Part shown: piece after piece, positions 5,906-14,013 of the stretch
Position numbering within the stretch: position 1 is the first letter of the stretch
Layout: each line of letters opens with the position of its first letter
From: an uncultured Dongia sp.
GTDB lineage: Bacteria; Pseudomonadota; Alphaproteobacteria; Dongiales; Dongiaceae
Reading direction: 5' to 3'
DNA length: 64,000 nucleotides
Assembly (NCBI RefSeq): GCF_936916975.1
Contig: NZ_CAKZGO010000020.1
Span: forward strand, 124,001 to 188,000
Notes under the pieces: model-generated
What the model was told of the DNA's origin: nothing
The model's input: only the letters and a program-made list of their open reading frames with translations
Database searches by the model: none
Made by a program: the position numbers and the translations under genes

Positions 5906-7330
5906 TCAAGCGGCCGGTTGCCGGCCGTTCCGCGACCCAGCGGGTTCCTCGCCGATCGCGTACCAATCGACCTTTCGGGTCGCCACCATGATCAGCACCA
6001 GGATCAGCAGCAGGCCGATTGTACCGGAGAGGAGCGCATAGCTCTCCATCTGCAGCAGCACGAACATGTAGCCGTGGAGAGCCGCCAGGATGAGCCCGGT
6101 GAGCAATCCCACAAGGCGCCGGATGGTCGCCCCGGCGTAACCGGCGACGATGGCGATATCGACCAGGCTGGCGATGAGATAGGCGCGGGCGAAGGACATC
6201 TGCTCGGCCAAGGACAGCAGCAGCAGATAGAACAGTGAGATCGCTGCCCCGATCAGCAGATATTGCACCAGATGCACGCGGTCGCGTTTCAGCAGGCCGA
6301 TGATGAAGATGGTGCCGAAGGTGAGCGATACCACCAGCAGGCCATATTTCACGATACGGTCGGTCTGCTGATGCACATCGCCCGGCTCGGCGAGACCGAC
6401 GCCGACCATGTCGACGGCGGTGGGTTCCAGCGTGAATTCGCCATCGCGCCAGGAGAGCGGAATACCGGTCGCCAGATGATTGATCGACCAGCGCCCGACA
6501 AAGCCGTCCTTGTCGATCTCCCGCGTCGCCGGCAAAGGCGAGCCGAGGAAATTGGGATGCGGCCAATCGCTCGACATCTCGATTTCGCTCTGGCCACCGA
6601 GCGGCAATACGCTCAGGGCATCGCGGCCGTTGATCGCCAGCTTGATCGAGAAGGTAAGTGGCCGCGGCCCGCTCAGCTTGAGATCGCTGCGCAGTCCCTG
6701 CCCGCGCGGATGCTGTGGCAGGAGGCCGGCATCGACGGTCTGTGGCTTGCCGTCGACCAGCAGTTCGATCGATTGCAGTGCGCGGGCGCCCGGCAGCAGG
6801 ATGGCAAGGCTCGCCTCGTTCCAATGAATCTGATCGGGCGGCACATTCCAGCGGCTGAAATCCGGGCTGGCAAAACTGCCGGTGACGTCGATCTTGGCGC
6901 CATAGACGAGGATTTCATAGATGCTCTTGTGCCGCTTTTCGACCTTGCTCTGTGCGGTCATGCGCGTCTTGGCCGGCAGGAACGTGGCGAAATGGCGAAC
7001 CCGGAACAGCGCTTCACTGCCATCGGCCTTGGGCCGGGTTTCCAGCATGTCATAGGGCACCACCAGAATCGGCGCACTGACCGATTGTACCGGCCCCCAT
7101 TGCTCGCCGACTTCGTCCATCACCTGCTGTTTGCGCCAGCTGCGTTCCTGCACCACGCCCTCGACCATGCCGAGCGGGATCAGCATCAGGAGGATCAGCG
7201 CGCCGAGGAACAGGATGCGCTTGGCAGCCTCGAAGCCGGAGCCGCGCCAGCGGTCACGCCATTGGCGCGGGTCGTATCTGCCCCGTTCCGACGGTCGCAT
7301 GGCACCAAAGTCGTCGTTGAGATCGGTCAT
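5906..7330 (-). CDS. creD: Inner membrane protein CreD
   Basis: A 474-residue CreD (Cet) family membrane protein. There is one N-terminal membrane helix (about 38-58, ILFLGALILLMLIPLG), a long periplasmic beta-rich domain including the family-typical GVVQERSWRKQQV and ILVVPY stretches, and then a run of about five hydrophobic helices from residue 330 to near the C-terminus. In enterobacteria creD is controlled by the CreBC two-component system, and its overexpression changes envelope properties and colicin E2 tolerance; its biochemical activity is unknown. No creB or creC homologue lies nearby. It appears to be a single-gene unit bounded by hairpins on both sides. Confidence 0.88.
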   Translation of the reverse strand: MTDLNDDFGAMRPSERGRYDPRQWRDRWRGSGFEAAKRILFLGALILLMLIPLGMVEGVVQERSWRKQQVMDEVGEQWGPVQSVSAPILVVPYDMLETRPKADGSEALFRVRHFATFLPAKTRMTAQSKVEKRHKSIYEILVYGAKIDVTGSFASPDFSRWNVPPDQIHWNEASLAILLPGARALQSIELLVDGKPQTVDAGLLPQHPRGQGLRSDLKLSGPRPLTFSIKLAINGRDALSVLPLGGQSEIEMSSDWPHPNFLGSPLPATREIDKDGFVGRWSINHLATGIPLSWRDGEFTLEPTAVDMVGVGLAEPGDVHQQTDRIVKYGLLVVSLTFGTIFIIGLLKRDRVHLVQYLLIGAAISLFYLLLLSLAEQMSFARAYLIASLVDIAIVAGYAGATIRRLVGLLTGLILAALHGYMFVLLQMESYALLSGTIGLLLILVLIMVATRKVDWYAIGEEPAGSRNGRQPAA

Positions 7331-7429: not shown

Positions 7430-7843
7430 CTACGGCTTGATGCCGCCCATCTTGCAGATCAGCTTCCATTGCGGCGCCGTGATCGGCATGACCGAGAGGC
7501 GCGACTGGCGGATGAGGGCGACGTCGGAAAGCTCCGGTTCGGCCTTGATCGCGGCCAGGGTCACCGGATTCTTCAACGGCCGCACCGGCTTCACATCGAC
7601 CATGCCGAACTTGCCGGTGGCATCAGTGTGGTCCGGGTAATATTCCTTGGCGATCTCACAGATGCCGACGATCTCCAGGCCTTCGTTGGAGTGATAGAAG
7701 AAAACCTGGTCACCTTTCTTCATCGCCTTCAGATTGTTGGCGGCCTGATAGTTGCGGACACCATTCCAGAAGGTCTTGCCGTCCTTGACCAATTGGTCCC
7801 AGGCGTATTTGACGGGTTCCGATTTCACCAGCCAGTGATTCAT
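7430..7843 (-). CDS. EVE domain protein
   Basis: A 137-residue protein made of a single EVE domain, a PUA-like fold that in eukaryotic and some bacterial members recognises modified bases. It begins MNHWLVKSEP, and NGVRNYQAANNLKAMKKGD with FFYHSNEGLEIVG is the standard EVE core. The ATG at 7843 is preceded by AAGGAGG, part of which overlaps the stop codon of yciI, so the two genes are coupled. It is the last gene of the tsaD operon. The actual ligand of stand-alone bacterial EVE proteins is not established. Confidence 0.9.
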   Translation of the reverse strand: MNHWLVKSEPVKYAWDQLVKDGKTFWNGVRNYQAANNLKAMKKGDQVFFYHSNEGLEIVGICEIAKEYYPDHTDATGKFGMVDVKPVRPLKNPVTLAAIKAEPELSDVALIRQSRLSVMPITAPQWKLICKMGGIKP

Positions 7844-7853
7844 ACGCGCCTCC

Positions 7854-8144
7854 TTATTTCGCCGCGCGCGGGAAGACGTTGCGATAGGGCGTGACGGTGA
7901 CCGATTGGAAGAGGCCTGCCTTGCTATAAGGGTCGGCTGCCAGGAAGGCATCGACGGCAACGCGGTCCGGCATATCCACCACGAGGAGGCTGCCGATCAT
8001 GGTCTCGCCATCCGGCGTCAGAAGCGGGCCACCGCTGATCAACTGCGCTTCATGTTTGATGAGGTGTTCGACATGTGCCGGCCGGTTGGCCATGCGCACC
8101 TCAAGGTGATCGGGCTTGTCGAGACAATAGATCATGAACGCCAT
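7854..8144 (-). CDS. YciI family protein
   Basis: A 96-residue YciI-like protein with a small ferredoxin-like alpha-beta fold. It opens with FMIYCLDKPDHLEVRM, has RPAHVEHL containing the conserved histidine, and ADPYSKAGLF near the end, all usual for the family. YciI proteins are proposed enzymes with a His-Asp pair, but their substrates are mostly unknown. It is co-transcribed between tsaD (37 bases upstream) and the EVE gene (10 bases downstream). In many alphaproteobacteria gpsA lies between tsaD and this gene; here it is absent. Confidence 0.88.
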   Translation of the reverse strand: MAFMIYCLDKPDHLEVRMANRPAHVEHLIKHEAQLISGGPLLTPDGETMIGSLLVVDMPDRVAVDAFLAADPYSKAGLFQSVTVTPYRNVFPRAAK

Positions 8145-8181
8145 ATCGGTTTCCTCATCCCTTGCAAAAGATCGGTCTTCA

Positions 8182-9243
8182 TTATGCTTTTACTCCGGCA
8201 CCGGCAAGAACCGGTGCCGCTTCGTCAAGCGGCCAGCGCGGGCGCGGCGCATAGTCGAAGCCGCTGCGTTCCCCGGCCTTCAAGCGCTCGATCCCGGCCC
8301 AGGCAATCATGGCGGCGTTGTCGGTGCACAGACGCGGCGGCGGTGCCACCAACGCCACACCGAAATCGGCGGCCGATTTCACCAGGCTCGCCCGCAGATG
8401 CTGGTTGGCGGCGACACCGCCGGCCACGACGAGGGCACTCAAACCGGGATGTTCCGCCTTGGCTATCTTGAGGGCATGCCGTGTGCGGTCGATCAGACAA
8501 TCGACCACCGCCTGCTGGAACCCGGCGGCAAGATTAGCGCGGGTCGTGTCATCAAAAATGTTGTCGGCACGCAAGGCATCGACGCGCTGGCGCAAGGCGG
8601 TCTTCAACCCGCTGAAGGAGAAGTTGCAATCCGGCCGGCCTTTCATCGGGCGCGGCAGATCGCGATAGGGAGCGGTCGCACCCTGTGCCGCTGCAGCCAC
8701 TGCCGGGCCACCGGGGAATCCGAGACCCATCAGTTTCGCCGCCTTGTCGAAGGCCTCGCCGGCGGCATCGTCGATAGTGGCGCCGAGACGGCGATAGCGC
8801 CCGACACCCTCCACCACCAGCAGTTGGCAATGACCGCCGGAAACCAGCAGCAGCAGGTAGGGAAAAGCCACATCGTCGGTGAGACGTGCGGTCAGCGCGT
8901 GGCCTTCCAGATGATTGACGGCGATGAACGGCTTGTTGTGGGCGAGGGCAATGGCCTTTGCCATCATCACGCCGACGATCACCCCGCCGATAAGGCCGGG
9001 ACCGCCGGTGACCGCGATGCCGTCGAGCTCGCTGAAAGCCATGCCGGCCTGGCGCATGGCGGCGGCGATGGTGTCGTCGAGATGGTCGAGATGGGCCCGG
9101 GCGGCGATTTCCGGCACGACGCCCCCAAACGGGGTGTGCTCGGCAATCTGGGCGAAAATGGTATCGGCCAGGATGCGCCGGTCGTCGGCGACCAGGGCCG
9201 CCGCCGTCTCGTCGCAGGATGATTCGATACCTAAAACAATCAT
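8182..9243 (-). CDS. tsaD: tRNA N6-threonylcarbamoyladenosine transferase TsaD
   Basis: TsaD moves the threonylcarbamoyl group from TC-AMP onto A37 of tRNAs that read ANN codons, working with TsaB and TsaE. The 353 residues match the family. The start MIVLGIESSCDET is the family signature, and HLEGHALTARL supplies the metal-binding histidines. The Kae1-type ATPase core continues with LLLVSGGHCQLL and VVAGGVAANQHLR. It diverges from hemC across a 76-base gap, a conserved alphaproteobacterial arrangement, so both promoters must lie there. TsaB and TsaE are not in this window. Confidence 0.96.
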   Translation of the reverse strand: MIVLGIESSCDETAAALVADDRRILADTIFAQIAEHTPFGGVVPEIAARAHLDHLDDTIAAAMRQAGMAFSELDGIAVTGGPGLIGGVIVGVMMAKAIALAHNKPFIAVNHLEGHALTARLTDDVAFPYLLLLVSGGHCQLLVVEGVGRYRRLGATIDDAAGEAFDKAAKLMGLGFPGGPAVAAAAQGATAPYRDLPRPMKGRPDCNFSFSGLKTALRQRVDALRADNIFDDTTRANLAAGFQQAVVDCLIDRTRHALKIAKAEHPGLSALVVAGGVAANQHLRASLVKSAADFGVALVAPPPRLCTDNAAMIAWAGIERLKAGERSGFDYAPRPRWPLDEAAPVLAGAGVKA

Positions 9244-9319: not shown

Positions 9320-10291
9320 ATGGCCGGTTCGCAAGCGGGGATCAACCAAGGGACGCAGCTCACGCGTGGGGCCGGCGTACGCATCGGCACGCGCGGATCG
9401 CCCCTGGCGCTTGCCCAGGCGGAAATGGTGAAAGCCGCCCTGGCCGCGGCCCATGCCCCCCTCGCCCAGCATGGCGCCATCGAGATCGTCATCATCAAGA
9501 CCACCGGGGACCAGATCCAGGACCGGGCATTGTCCGAGATCGGCGGCAAGGGCCTGTTTACCAAGGAAATCGAGGAAGCCCTGCTGGCGGATGCCATCGA
9601 CCTCGCCGTCCATTCCATGAAGGATGTGCCGACCCGCCTGCCCGACGGTCTGGAAATCTGCTGCCTGTTGGAACGCGAGGATCCGCGCGACGTGCTGATC
9701 AGCCGCAGCGGCAATTCCATCGCCACCCTGCCGCAGGGTGCCGTCATCGGCTCGGCATCGCTGCGCCGGCAGGCGCAATTGCTGGCCCTGCGCCCGGACC
9801 TCAAGGTCGTGACACTGCGTGGCAATGTCGGCACCCGCCTCGCCAAGCTCGCCAAGGGCGATGCGGATGCGACACTGCTGGCGCTGGCCGGGCTGAAGCG
9901 GCTGGGCAAGGCCGATGTCGCTACCGCGATCCTCGATATGACGGAAATGTTGCCGGCGGTGGCCCAGGGCGCCATCGGCATTGAAATCCGCGCGGCCGAT
10001 CGCCGCATGCGCGATCTGCTGCAGCCCTTGCATCATCGGGCAACCGAAATCGCGGTCACCGCGGAACGGGCCTGCCTTGCCGAACTGGAAGGTTCCTGCC
10101 GCACGCCGATCGCCGCCTATGCCGAGATTGCAGCGGACGGCCAGTTGCATCTCCGCGCCCTCATCGCCAAACCGGATGGCAGCGCTGTCCATCGCGACGC
10201 GCGCCAGGGCCCGGTCGCCGATGCCGAACGCCTCGGCCGCGACTCGGGGCGATACCTTAAGTCACTAGCCGGGCCGGACTTCCTGGCTTAG
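9320..10291 (+). CDS. hemC: Porphobilinogen deaminase (hydroxymethylbilane synthase)
   Basis: HemC joins four porphobilinogen molecules into hydroxymethylbilane in the cytoplasm. The first residues after a short leader, VRIGTRGSPLALAQAEMV, are diagnostic, HSMKDVPTRLPDGL follows, and C-terminally LEGSCRTPIAAYAEI holds the cysteine that carries the dipyrromethane cofactor. I chose ATG 9320, with AGGAGG at 9304-9309, giving 323 residues; the open frame extends further upstream but those codons overlap tsaD. The next gene supplies the next step in the pathway (HemD), 10 bases downstream. Confidence 0.96.
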   Translation: MAGSQAGINQGTQLTRGAGVRIGTRGSPLALAQAEMVKAALAAAHAPLAQHGAIEIVIIKTTGDQIQDRALSEIGGKGLFTKEIEEALLADAIDLAVHSMKDVPTRLPDGLEICCLLEREDPRDVLISRSGNSIATLPQGAVIGSASLRRQAQLLALRPDLKVVTLRGNVGTRLAKLAKGDADATLLALAGLKRLGKADVATAILDMTEMLPAVAQGAIGIEIRAADRRMRDLLQPLHHRATEIAVTAERACLAELEGSCRTPIAAYAEIAADGQLHLRALIAKPDGSAVHRDARQGPVADAERLGRDSGRYLKSLAGPDFLA

Positions 10292-10301
10292 TTTTGGCCT
10301 T

Positions 10302-12467
10302 ATGCGCATTCTCATCACGCGACCCAAGCAAGATGCCGACAGTTTCGCTGCAACCCTGATCGCTCAGGGGCAGGACGTCACGGTTGAACCGCTGCTGACC
10401 ATCCAGCCGACCACCGCGCCCGCGATCGATCTCGACGGTGTCCAGGCGATCCTGTTCACCAGCGCCAATGGCGTGCGCTGCTTTGCCGCTGCCAGCCCAC
10501 GCCGCGATCTCAGGATCTTCGCGGTCGGAGACGCCTCAGCCGAGGCTGCCACAGCCGCCGGTTTTGCCAAGATCGAGAGTGCGGCCGGCGATGTCGGCAG
10601 CCTGGCGACACTCGTCACCGATCGGCTGCACCCGCGCGACGGCGCCCTGCTGCATGCGGCAGGGTCGAGCCTGGCCGGCGACCTCAAGGGCCAGCTCGAA
10701 GCGGCCGGCTTTGTGGTCCGGCGCGTGGTGCTTTACGATGCCGTGCCAGCGGCGGAGTTATCGCCCAGCACGCTGATGAATCTGCGTCTGGGCGGGATCG
10801 ATGCCATCGCCCTGTTCTCGCCTCGCTCGGCGCGCAATTTTGCCACGCTGTGGCGCAAGGCGCAGACGGCGGAAACGGCGGGACTGCAGAAGGTGACGGC
10901 GCTCTGCCTCAGTGCTGCCGTGGCGCGCGAAGTGAAGGATCTGGACTGGCGCCGCAACGAAATCGCGGCTCGTCCTGACAGCGAATCCCTGTTGGCCCTG
11001 GTTGCGGCCGAACAGCAAAGGAGAGATGCGGAGATGGCAAGTTCAGCCCAGGATGCCACCGACCGGTCGCCCGAAAGCGGTGCCAGCTCGGCCAAGATCG
11101 ATGCCGAGATGCGCGCGGCGGCCGCGAGCGACGCCGCCGCAGGTGCTGCGATCGTGGCAGCGATGCCCAAGCCCGCCAGTGGTGGCCGTGGTGGCAGCCT
11201 GGTCCTCGGCCTCATTGCCGGCGCCATCGCCGGTGCGGGCATGGTGGTAGCCGAGCCTTATTGGCGCCCGTATCTGCCGCTGCAGGCCGCCACCGAGAGC
11301 GGGCCAAGCCTGGCCGGCATCTCCGAGGAACTTGCCAATCTCAAGCAGCAGGTAACCGGCAAGCAAGCGGTGGACGCCGAAGCGCGCCAGAACATCCAGG
11401 CGCTGCAAGCTGAGATCACCAATTGGAAAGACCAGCTGGCGCAGGCAACCGGCAAAAGCGGCAGCGCGCCAACACCGATCGACTTCGGCCCGATCGAGAT
11501 GCGGCTTGCGGCCCTTGAGGAGAAGCTCAACGCCCTGCCGGCGACGACAACCGAGCCGACAAGCACCGACACCACGTCACCCGAGACAACACCCGAGACA
11601 ACACCGGCACCGGTCGCCGATATCAGCCCGCTCATCGCGCGCATTGCCGAGCTGGAAGGCCGCCTTGCCGCCATGGGCGACGCTACCACGCGGCTCGATT
11701 TCCTCAGCAGCGAGACAGCGACGCAGAAAGCGGAGATCGAAACGGCAAAGGCAAAGCTGGAGAACGTGTCGGCCCTGACCGATCGCCTGGCAGCGCTCGA
11801 AGGCGAAGCCAAAACCTTGGGCGCCGGGCTCGATGCGATGAGCCAGAACAATGCCGACGTTGCGTTGAAGCGGCAGCGTGCCGCAGCTCTCGTGCTCTCA
11901 CTCGGCCAGTTGCGCGGGGCCTTGTCGAGCGACAAGCCATTCTCCGCCGAGCTGGCAGCGGCCGAAGATCTCGGCCGTGCTGATGCTGATCTCGCGGCGA
12001 AACTTGCGCCTGCCCTGGATGCCTTGCGACCCTTTGCCAATGACGGTGCGCCGACACTGTCGCAATTGCAGGCCGAATTGCCGGTGGCAAGCATTGCCCA
12101 GGCGGCGTCCGCCGATGCAACCGGCGAGGCGCTCGGCGTGGAGAGCGGTTGGATGCAAAAGACCCTCAATCGCCTCTCGGAACTGGCGACCTTGCGCCCG
12201 GTGGGCGAGGTCGAAGGCGAGGGTGCACTGGCCCATCTCGCGCGCGCCGAAACGCGCCTCGCTGCTGGTGATCTTGCCGCTGCGGTGGCCGAGTTGAAGG
12301 GCATGAGTGGCCAGGCCGCGACCGCGGCTGAAACTTGGCTGGTCCGCGCCGAAGCGCGCCTCACCCTCGATGAGACCGCCGGCCGCCTCGCCAGCCTTTC
12401 GGCCGAAGCATTGGTGCCGGCGGTCGACGCGACCGAGGGCCCCGCATCGCCCGAACCATCGAATTGA
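10302..12467 (+). CDS. hemD: Uroporphyrinogen-III synthase fused to a mitofilin/Mic60-type membrane protein
   Basis: A 721-residue fusion. Residues 1 to about 240 are a complete uroporphyrinogen-III synthase (MRILITRPKQDADSFAATL, then ILFTSANGVRCF and IALFSPRSARNF), which cyclises hydroxymethylbilane. From residue 245 the sequence is that of the separate alphaproteobacterial mitofilin/Mic60 protein (COG4223 type): an acidic, Ala-rich cytoplasmic segment, one membrane helix at about 298-316 (VLGLIAGAIAGAGMVVA), a coiled coil at about 335-555 broken by a Thr/Pro/Glu-rich linker, and a helical C-terminal domain. No stop separates the parts. A ribosome-site-like AAAGGAGAG at 11017-11025 and an in-frame ATG at 11034 sit exactly at the junction, so a 477-residue Mic60 might also be made separately. 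The stop is 13 bases before hemY. Confidence 0.88.
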   Translation: MRILITRPKQDADSFAATLIAQGQDVTVEPLLTIQPTTAPAIDLDGVQAILFTSANGVRCFAAASPRRDLRIFAVGDASAEAATAAGFAKIESAAGDVGSLATLVTDRLHPRDGALLHAAGSSLAGDLKGQLEAAGFVVRRVVLYDAVPAAELSPSTLMNLRLGGIDAIALFSPRSARNFATLWRKAQTAETAGLQKVTALCLSAAVAREVKDLDWRRNEIAARPDSESLLALVAAEQQRRDAEMASSAQDATDRSPESGASSAKIDAEMRAAAASDAAAGAAIVAAMPKPASGGRGGSLVLGLIAGAIAGAGMVVAEPYWRPYLPLQAATESGPSLAGISEELANLKQQVTGKQAVDAEARQNIQALQAEITNWKDQLAQATGKSGSAPTPIDFGPIEMRLAALEEKLNALPATTTEPTSTDTTSPETTPETTPAPVADISPLIARIAELEGRLAAMGDATTRLDFLSSETATQKAEIETAKAKLENVSALTDRLAALEGEAKTLGAGLDAMSQNNADVALKRQRAAALVLSLGQLRGALSSDKPFSAELAAAEDLGRADADLAAKLAPALDALRPFANDGAPTLSQLQAELPVASIAQAASADATGEALGVESGWMQKTLNRLSELATLRPVGEVEGEGALAHLARAETRLAAGDLAAAVAELKGMSGQAATAAETWLVRAEARLTLDETAGRLASLSAEALVPAVDATEGPASPEPSN
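11017..11036 (+). promoter_or_regulatory. Possible internal ribosome-binding site and start inside the hemD fusion
   Basis: AAAGGAGAG is followed 8 bases later by ATG (11034), in frame with the fusion and at the boundary of the two domains. It looks like the start signal of a formerly separate Mic60 gene. Whether it is still used is unknown. Confidence 0.45.
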
Positions 12468-12480
12468 CGAGGAACGGATA

Positions 12481-14013
12481 ATGACTTTTTTCCGAATCCT
12501 CTGGTTTGTCATCAAGCTTGCCCTGCTGGTCGGCGTCGCGGTCTATCTCGCCAATCGCCCTGGCAATCTGTCGCTGGTCTGGTTCGGCTACCGGCTCGAC
12601 CTTCATCCGATCGCCCTTTCCTTGCTGGGCGTGCTGCTGTGCTTGGGAATTCTCTATGTGATCGGCCGCCTCGTTGCGCGCGTCGTCGCGGTGCCCGGCG
12701 ATATCGGCGCGATGCGCGGCCATGCGCGGGAGGCCAAGGGTTATCAGGCGCTGACGCGCGGCCTCGCAGCCGCGGCCGCCGGTGATGCACGCGAGGCCAA
12801 GCGTCTTTCCGTCACTGCGCGCAAGCTGCTGAGTCATGGCGGCAAAGAACCGCCGATAACGCGCCTGCTTGCCGCCCAAGCGGCGCAATTGGAAGGCGAC
12901 GATGTCGCGGCGCAGGTGCATTTCAAGGCGCTTGCCGAAACGCCGGAGACGGCCATTCTCGGCCTCCGCGGCCTGGCGCTGGGTGCGCTCAAGGACGGCA
13001 ATGTTGTTGAAGCGCGGCGCCTCGCTGAACGAGCGCTCGCCGCCAATCCGAACGCGCAATGGGCCGCCGAAACAGCTTTGCGCCTGCAGGCCAAGGCTGG
13101 GCGTTTCGATGCCGCCGATGAAAGCCTGAAGGCAGTCGTCCGCGCGGGTGCCCTCAACGCCAAGACCGGGCAGCGCCGCCGTGCCGCGCTGCTCACGGAG
13201 AAGGCGCGTCAGGCGCTGATCGTCGATGGCACGGATGTGTCAGCCGATATCGCCATGAGTGCCGCGCGCGAGGCCGTGAAGCTCGCCGGCGATTTCGCCC
13301 CTGCCCGCTTCGTGCTGGTGCGCCTGATGGTGCGCCAGGGCAAGCGCAAGGAGGCAATGCGCCTCATTGAGCAGATCTGGGACAGTCATCCCCATGAGAT
13401 CCTTGGCGAAGCCTATCTCGCTGCCGGCGACAATGAACGCCCGCTCGAACGGACCCAGCGCCTTGAGCGCCTGCAGAAGCAGAATCCGGATCACCCGGAG
13501 AGCCACCGCATCCTCGCGGAGGCCGATATTGCTGCAGAGCTGTGGGGCGAAGCCCGCCGCCATATCGATCGCTTGATGGTGATCGAAACCGATGCCTTGG
13601 GTGGTTTTAGCCGTTCCACCTGCCGCGCCTTGGCCCAGATCGAGGAACGCGAAAAAGGCGACCAGGCCGCCGCCCGCCGCTGGTTGGATGCCGCCAGTTC
13701 CGCCAGGCCCGATGCTGCCTGGATATGCCGGCAATGCGGCACCCCTGGCGATGCCGGGCCGGAAAGCGGCCACTGGCAGCTGATCTGCCCCCATTGCGAG
13801 TCGCTCGACAGCCTGGAATGGCGCCATCCTGCCGGCGGCCGGGCCGGCGGCACCGCCTTGGCCCCCATGATTGCACCCAGCCAACCGGCTAACCTCGTTG
13901 ATCGACCAGCGGAATTTGAAATTCTGCCAGCACCCGTCAATAGCCGGGTCGAGAGCGGCAGCCAGCCAATTTCCTCTGCCGCATCAGTTGACGCGGCCCG
14001 ACTGATAAACTAG
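12481..14013 (+). CDS. hemY: HemY-type TPR membrane protein with C-terminal zinc ribbon
   Basis: A 510-residue HemY_N family protein (not the protoporphyrinogen oxidase that shares the name). Two N-terminal membrane helices, at about 2-22 and 40-62 (FRILWFVIKLALLVGVAVYL; LLGVLLCLGILYVIG), are followed by a long TPR-like helical solenoid. Near the C-terminus a zinc ribbon has two CxxC pairs (WICRQCGT and LICPHCESL, about residues 420-440), resembling LapB/YciM. The product is thought to organise heme synthesis at the membrane, but no enzymatic step is assigned. ATG 12481 was chosen for the GAGGAA upstream and the family-typical membrane start; the frame is open further upstream inside hemD. 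Last gene of the hem operon. Confidence 0.9.
   Translation: MTFFRILWFVIKLALLVGVAVYLANRPGNLSLVWFGYRLDLHPIALSLLGVLLCLGILYVIGRLVARVVAVPGDIGAMRGHAREAKGYQALTRGLAAAAAGDAREAKRLSVTARKLLSHGGKEPPITRLLAAQAAQLEGDDVAAQVHFKALAETPETAILGLRGLALGALKDGNVVEARRLAERALAANPNAQWAAETALRLQAKAGRFDAADESLKAVVRAGALNAKTGQRRRAALLTEKARQALIVDGTDVSADIAMSAAREAVKLAGDFAPARFVLVRLMVRQGKRKEAMRLIEQIWDSHPHEILGEAYLAAGDNERPLERTQRLERLQKQNPDHPESHRILAEADIAAELWGEARRHIDRLMVIETDALGGFSRSTCRALAQIEEREKGDQAAARRWLDAASSARPDAAWICRQCGTPGDAGPESGHWQLICPHCESLDSLEWRHPAGGRAGGTALAPMIAPSQPANLVDRPAEFEILPAPVNSRVESGSQPISSAASVDAARLIN

What the first reader, a model, noticed from the sequence alone, without database searches (positions are those of the whole stretch)
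10302..12467. HemD fused in frame to a mitofilin/Mic60 homologue, with a relic internal ribosome site
Seen in the sequence: one uninterrupted 721-codon frame whose first 240 residues are a whole uroporphyrinogen-III synthase, and whose remainder is the single-helix, coiled-coil mitofilin-type protein. From established knowledge, alphaproteobacterial Mic60 genes lie in this hemC-hemD-hemY neighbourhood as separate genes. Inference: fusion tethers the enzyme to the inner membrane, linking heme synthesis to membrane shaping. AAAGGAGAG and ATG 11034 at the junction suggest that a stand-alone Mic60 may also be made, giving two products from one gene.
Basis: partly seen in the sequence, partly recalled or inferred. 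Interest (0 to 1): 0.72.

Follow-up and report, generated by a model that had tools for sequence, protein, structure and literature searches.

The report
Heme enzyme fused to mitofilin relative
In this bacterium (genus Dongia) a heme-making enzyme (HemD) and the bacterial relative of the mitochondrial membrane-folding protein Mic60 are written as one gene; the fusion is real, runs through the whole family, has arisen or been undone many times in related bacteria, and in this genus it carries a conserved second start site that probably also yields Mic60 alone.

Summary
Window 10302-12467 (+) is one open frame of 721 codons: a complete HemD domain (Pfam HEM4, E 1e-38), a linker, one transmembrane helix, coiled coil and a C-terminal mitofilin domain, in the known hemC-hemD-mic60-hemY operon. 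It is not a sequencing error: all 15 family relatives with a match are fused, and the gene is the genome's only HemD. Nor is it unique: of 153 alphaproteobacterial loci with both domains side by side, 67 (25 families) are fused and 86 split; eight families and two genera hold both states, and the tree needs at least 25 switches (9 forced by supported branches). In a one-per-family sample fusion is the minority (4 against 17). Outside Dongiaceae no such excess is seen. Best reading: stop-codon loss made a membrane-tethered HemD, and in Dongia and its near relatives internal initiation also makes free Mic60. Protein products were not tested.

The parts
10302..12467 (+). fused hemD-mic60 open reading frame, 721 aa, stop TGA
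   Evidence: only HEM4 copy in the genome
10341..10994 (+). HemD (uroporphyrinogen-III synthase) domain, residues 14-231
   Evidence: Pfam HEM4 E 1.2e-38; NCBIfam PRK09189 residues 1-235
11017..11025 (+). AAAGGAGAG, internal Shine-Dalgarno-like site; AAAGGAG ends 10 nt before ATG 11034
   Evidence: 7-base match to the anti-SD (3 of 2121 internal in-frame ATGs reach 7); duplex -8.9 kcal/mol; anti-SD CCTCC confirmed in own 16S
11034..12467 (+). candidate second product: stand-alone Mic60 of 477 aa from in-frame ATG 11034
   Evidence: ATG with SD present in 10 of 16 Dongiaceae; that it is translated is inference
11193..11252 (+). single transmembrane helix (residues about 298-317); the HemD side would be cytoplasmic
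   Evidence: hydropathy (Kyte-Doolittle mean 2.18 over 19 residues) and alignment A1
11310..11921 (+). helical, coiled-coil-like region
   Evidence: generic coiled-coil profile hits; helices in a low-confidence model
11820..12362 (+). C-terminal mitofilin domain, residues 507-687
   Evidence: Pfam Mitofilin E 0.0012 here, over cut-off at the same locus in congeners; 7pv1
9377..10249 (+). hemC, porphobilinogen deaminase domains; its stop (10289-10291) is 10 nt before the fused gene
   Evidence: Pfam E 2.4e-84
12481..14013 (+). hemY-type gene (HemY_N plus TPR), 510 aa
   Evidence: Pfam HemY_N E 1.7e-21
8182..9243 (-). tsaD, divergent neighbour
   Evidence: Pfam TsaD E 1.4e-91
7430..8144 (-). YciI (7854-8144) and EVE-domain (7430-7960) genes of the conserved divergent unit
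   Evidence: Pfam YCII and EVE

Best explanation
The gene is a true, family-wide fusion of two neighbours of the alphaproteobacterial hemC-hemD-mic60-hemY operon, of the kind made by loss of the hemD stop codon. The full-length product is the cell's only HemD, carried on the cytoplasmic N-terminus of an inner-membrane Mic60, so that uroporphyrinogen-III synthesis is tethered to the membrane. In Dongia and its closest genera a conserved internal ribosome-binding site and ATG at the junction also initiate translation of Mic60 alone, so one gene gives two products and Mic60 can outnumber HemD. Shown here: the frame, the domains, conservation, recurrence, and selection-like conservation of the internal site. 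Inferred: stop loss as the route, membrane tethering, and actual use of the second start.
For: Unbroken frame and domains. All Dongiaceae with a match are fused. Only one HEM4 gene in a genome estimated 100% complete. 67 fused against 86 split loci, 25 families with fused genes, eight of them mixed, within-genus switches; at least 25 state changes, at least 9 forced by supported branches. Both halves under purifying selection. Internal site: 7-base SD, reached by 3 of 2121 internal in-frame ATGs and by 4 of 5000 synonymous shuffles of the gene; duplex stronger than 99.3% of internal ATGs and about 92% of predicted gene starts. AGG and AGA are 4.9% of Arg codons and only 9 of 539 Arg-Arg pairs use two of them, yet AGG-AGA is identical in four Dongia species and AGA-AGG stands in a fifth. 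Sister genus g4 keeps AAAGGAG in a different reading register. G004, without the ATG, has CGC-CGC there. In Dongiaceae 7 junction ATGs have an SD of 6 or more against 0.27 expected from synonymous shuffles, 0 of 200 as high.
Against: No protein or RNA data. The genomes of the SD-bearing clade are related, so the counts are not independent. Outside Dongiaceae the junction shows no SD excess over synonymous shuffles (10 observed, 7.6 expected), so dual products are not a general feature of the fusion. Six Dongiaceae lack the internal start, so the family does not need a free Mic60. The structural model was too poor to use (mean pLDDT 43).
Confidence: 0.62

Rival explanations
1. Obligate fusion with a vestigial internal site: only the 721-residue protein is made, and the SD and ATG are leftovers from the time when mic60 was a separate gene.
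For: The site is absent in other Dongiaceae that are also fused (g2, g3, g5, g6 and G004), so it is dispensable; no SD excess in fused genes of other families.
Against: Only 28.5% of conserved degenerate codons are identical across the four Dongia species, yet both rare Arg codons of the SD are; a strong SD occurs only where the in-frame ATG is present.
Confidence: 0.22
2. The SD-like sequence is a translational pause between two domains, giving HemD time to fold before the transmembrane helix emerges, and not a start site.
For: It lies right after HemD and some 55 codons before the membrane helix.
Against: An in-frame ATG at workable spacing accompanies the SD in all ten genomes that have it, and no strong SD is seen at the junction of the six that lack such an ATG.
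Confidence: 0.08
3. The full-length protein is cut after synthesis into HemD and Mic60, so the fusion has no lasting physical meaning.
For: The linker is variable and low in complexity, as cleavable linkers often are.
Against: No conserved cleavage motif is visible in the linker alignment; otherwise untested.
Confidence: 0.08

Closest known systems
Alphaproteobacterial Mic60 in the hemC-hemD-IMMP/mitofilin-hemY operon facing tsaD-gpsA-yciI-EVE (PMC7641849)
   Same: Same genes, same order, same divergent arrangement; same Mic60 architecture (cytoplasmic tail, one membrane helix, coiled coil, C-terminal mitofilin domain).
   Different: hemD and mic60 are one frame here; gpsA is not between tsaD and yciI in this window.
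Fused HemD/HemX of NCBIfam NF005411
   Same: HemD joined to a membrane protein encoded next to it in a hem operon; what it works like is a membrane-tethered HemD.
   Different: The membrane half here is mitofilin-like; no HemX match at the locus in 21 genomes although the E. coli control rings.
Stand-alone HemD and Mic60 of related Alphaproteobacteria (86 split loci)
   Same: Orthologous domains in the same order; in 23 of the first 80 split loci even in the same frame, parted by a stop.
   Different: Two genes instead of one.

Membership tests
HemD, uroporphyrinogen-III synthase (PF02602) | full-length HEM4 domain over the curated cut-off | tested here: met
   133 bits against 27.5, profile 2-230 of 231
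HemD, uroporphyrinogen-III synthase (PF02602) | is the genome's HemD (no other copy) | tested here: met
   one match in G000, completeness 100
HemD, uroporphyrinogen-III synthase (PF02602) | enzyme activity | not testable with these tools
   needs an assay or hemD complementation
Mic60 / mitofilin (PF09731) | C-terminal mitofilin domain over the curated cut-off | tested here: inconclusive
   window protein 18-20 bits against 27.4, but orthologues at the same locus in four of six congeners pass and the family profile hits Mic60 structure 7pv1 at 6e-8
Mic60 / mitofilin (PF09731) | one N-terminal transmembrane helix followed by coiled coil | tested here: met
   coiled coil from profile hits only
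Mic60 / mitofilin (PF09731) | hem-operon neighbourhood of alphaproteobacterial mic60 | tested here: met
   hemC before, HemY_N-TPR gene after, tsaD/yciI/EVE divergent
Mic60 / mitofilin (PF09731) | membrane bending, interaction with BamA | not testable with these tools
   needs experiment
HemD/HemX fusion (NF005411) | HemX domain in the C-terminal half | tested here: not met
   no HemX match at the locus in 21 genomes, E. coli control positive; NF005411 matched only residues 1-89 of the HemD half

The most novel reading that the evidence does not exclude
HemD-Mic60 fusion is a recurrent, selected way to anchor an early heme enzyme at Mic60 membrane sites, and in Dongia the same gene is built, by a ribosome site kept under synonymous constraint, to make both the anchored enzyme and surplus free Mic60.
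Probability: 0.45. Interest if true: 0.6.

Novelty: new variant of a known kind. Interest (0 to 1): 0.45.

Why it matters
Mic60 is the bacterial root of the mitochondrial cristae machinery, and why its gene sits among heme genes has no explanation that I know of. Repeated gene fusion is comparative evidence that HemD and Mic60 can work as one molecule, and perhaps work together. Fused and split species within one genus, and a Dongia gene that seems to make both forms, turn that into a direct test: compare heme flux and membrane shape with the enzyme tethered and untethered.

Tried and rejected
Sequencing or assembly error at the junction: rejected, 16 Dongiaceae genomes agree. A second HemD elsewhere: rejected. 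Dual-start signature in all fused genes: a raw test looked strong (SD of 5 or more before 13.5% of junction ATGs against 1.3% elsewhere), but with synonymous-shuffle controls the excess vanished outside Dongiaceae. HemX homology by Pfam profile: nothing at the locus, although PMC7641849 states a distant HemX relation. AlphaFold on a four-sequence alignment: mean pLDDT 43, so no fold search was made; a deeper alignment would have needed loci the tool does not accept. The first classification of loci ignored strand and was redone. The literature held here has no report of the fusion; key Mic60 papers of 2015-2023 are not held, so prior notice there cannot be excluded.

Full report
Observation. 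Window 10302-12467 (+) is one uninterrupted frame of 721 codons. Pfam places HEM4 at residues 14-231 (E 1.2e-38) and the C-terminal part of Mitofilin at 507-687 (E 0.0012). The mitofilin half of this one protein is below Pfam's cut-off, but at the same locus four of six congeners pass it, 15 of 16 aligned relatives match it, and a profile of the family finds the Mic60 crystal construct 7pv1 as its best PDB match (E 6e-8). One hydrophobic helix (residues about 298-317) separates the HemD side from a helical stretch and the mitofilin domain.

Setting. hemC lies just upstream (its stop is 10 nt before the fused gene), a HemY_N-TPR gene 13 nt downstream, and tsaD, yciI and an EVE-domain gene face the other way. 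This is the known alphaproteobacterial neighbourhood HemC-HemD-mitofilin-HemY opposite TsaD-GpsA-YciI-EVE (PMC7641849). The window's nearest named relative is a metagenome bin labelled Dongia mobilis, placed in the same genus as the window, so the organism is taken to belong to Dongia (Dongiaceae, Alphaproteobacteria).

Not an error. All 15 relatives of the family in which the gene was found have it fused. Both halves are under purifying selection (omega 0.12-0.26 for the HemD and mitofilin parts in three pairs of species). The genome, estimated 100% complete, has no other HEM4 protein, so the fused gene must supply uroporphyrinogen-III synthase.

Not unique. A profile search of 387 alphaproteobacterial genomes, followed by reading of the loci and a strand-aware classification with separate HemD and mitofilin profiles, gave 67 fused and 86 split loci; 17 families were all fused, eight mixed, 34 all split. 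Genera g48 (family f42) and g173 (f97) contain both states. This sample favours fused genes, since the profile was made from fused proteins and the best-scoring genomes were read. In the first search, which drew one genome per family outside Dongiaceae, 4 families were fused and 17 split where both domains were side by side. On a tree of the HemD and mitofilin domains without the linker, the state changes at least 25 times, and well-supported branches force at least 9 (quick tree, weakly resolved at depth, so the direction cannot be told). Among the first 80 split loci, 23 have the two genes in the same frame; that is about the one in three expected by chance, but it means that a stop codon is all that parts them there, so stop loss is an easy route to fusion and stop gain an easy way back. 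This route is inference.

The internal site. AAAGGAGAG (11017-11025) precedes the in-frame ATG 11034. The genome's 16S ends in GGATCACCTCCTT, so AAAGGAG is a seven-base match to the anti-SD. In 258 predicted genes of 364 kb of this genome, 3 of 2121 internal in-frame ATGs have as much; the duplex energy of -8.9 kcal/mol is equalled by 0.7% of internal ATGs and 8% of predicted starts. In synonymous shuffles of the gene it appears in 4 of 5000. In four Dongia species the SD is written in the rare arginine codons AGG-AGA (together 4.9% of Arg codons; 9 of 539 Arg-Arg pairs use two rare codons), identical in all four although only 28.5% of comparable codons are; a fifth has AGA-AGG. The sister genus g4 has AAAGGAG in another register, and the longest run of unchanged codons in its gene lies across it (such a run somewhere in a gene is not by itself improbable). 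G004 and genera g2, g3, g5 and g6 have no in-frame ATG with such an SD at the junction. The site thus looks used, not relic, in one clade of Dongiaceae. In fused genes of other families a first test suggested the same, but against synonymous shuffles there is no excess (10 against 7.6 expected); dual products are not claimed there.

How it most likely works. Translation from ATG 10302, which has no SD of its own and may be coupled to the end of hemC (inference), gives a membrane protein whose cytoplasmic head is HemD and whose periplasmic part is Mic60. In Dongia, ribosomes entering at 11034 add Mic60 without HemD. Tethering could bring the enzyme near later membrane-associated heme steps, or the fusion could simply be tolerated, because HemD's C-terminus and Mic60's N-terminal tail are both free in the cytoplasm. 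The data do not decide between use and tolerance; the many switches argue that the fusion costs little and is not essential.

Known or new. The parts and the neighbourhood are known. HemD fused to a different membrane protein, HemX, is a curated NCBI family (NF005411), so the design has a parallel; this gene is not a member, since HemX was not found at the locus. No paper held here reports HemD-Mic60 fusions, but the main alphaproteobacterial Mic60 papers are not held, and domain databases may well list the architecture (my recollection, untested). I file it as a new variant of a known kind. The recurrence and the conserved second start are what is worth attention.

Limits.

Noticed in passing
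L019, L063, L069, L073, L119, L122 and others: 27 of 153 loci, 13 families: Many alphaproteobacterial Mic60 proteins, fused or not, carry a conserved Cro/YdaS-like helix-turn-helix module (NCBIfam 'carph-isopro' domain NF046037, E 5e-20 and 3e-16, over cut-off) on the N-terminal, presumably cytoplasmic, side of the protein. A DNA-binding-like domain on a membrane-shaping protein is unexpected; it is absent in the window gene.
   Followed up: partly
window 7430-9243: gpsA, usually between tsaD and yciI in the conserved unit, is not there: tsaD (-), yciI (-) and EVE (-) follow each other directly.
   Followed up: no
window 5906-7330 (-): A CreD-type inner membrane protein gene (Pfam E 4e-121) follows the EVE gene.
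   Followed up: no
L021 (G044:C1:388-4152): The fused gene of G044 occurs three times, two of them as an inverted repeat at the contig start and one near its end; probably an assembly artefact at the ends of the contig.
   Followed up: no
G058 (L167; Mic60 match at G058:C4:45574-46293): In this genome HemD and the mitofilin homologue lie on different contigs, so the neighbourhood itself can be broken up.
   Followed up: no
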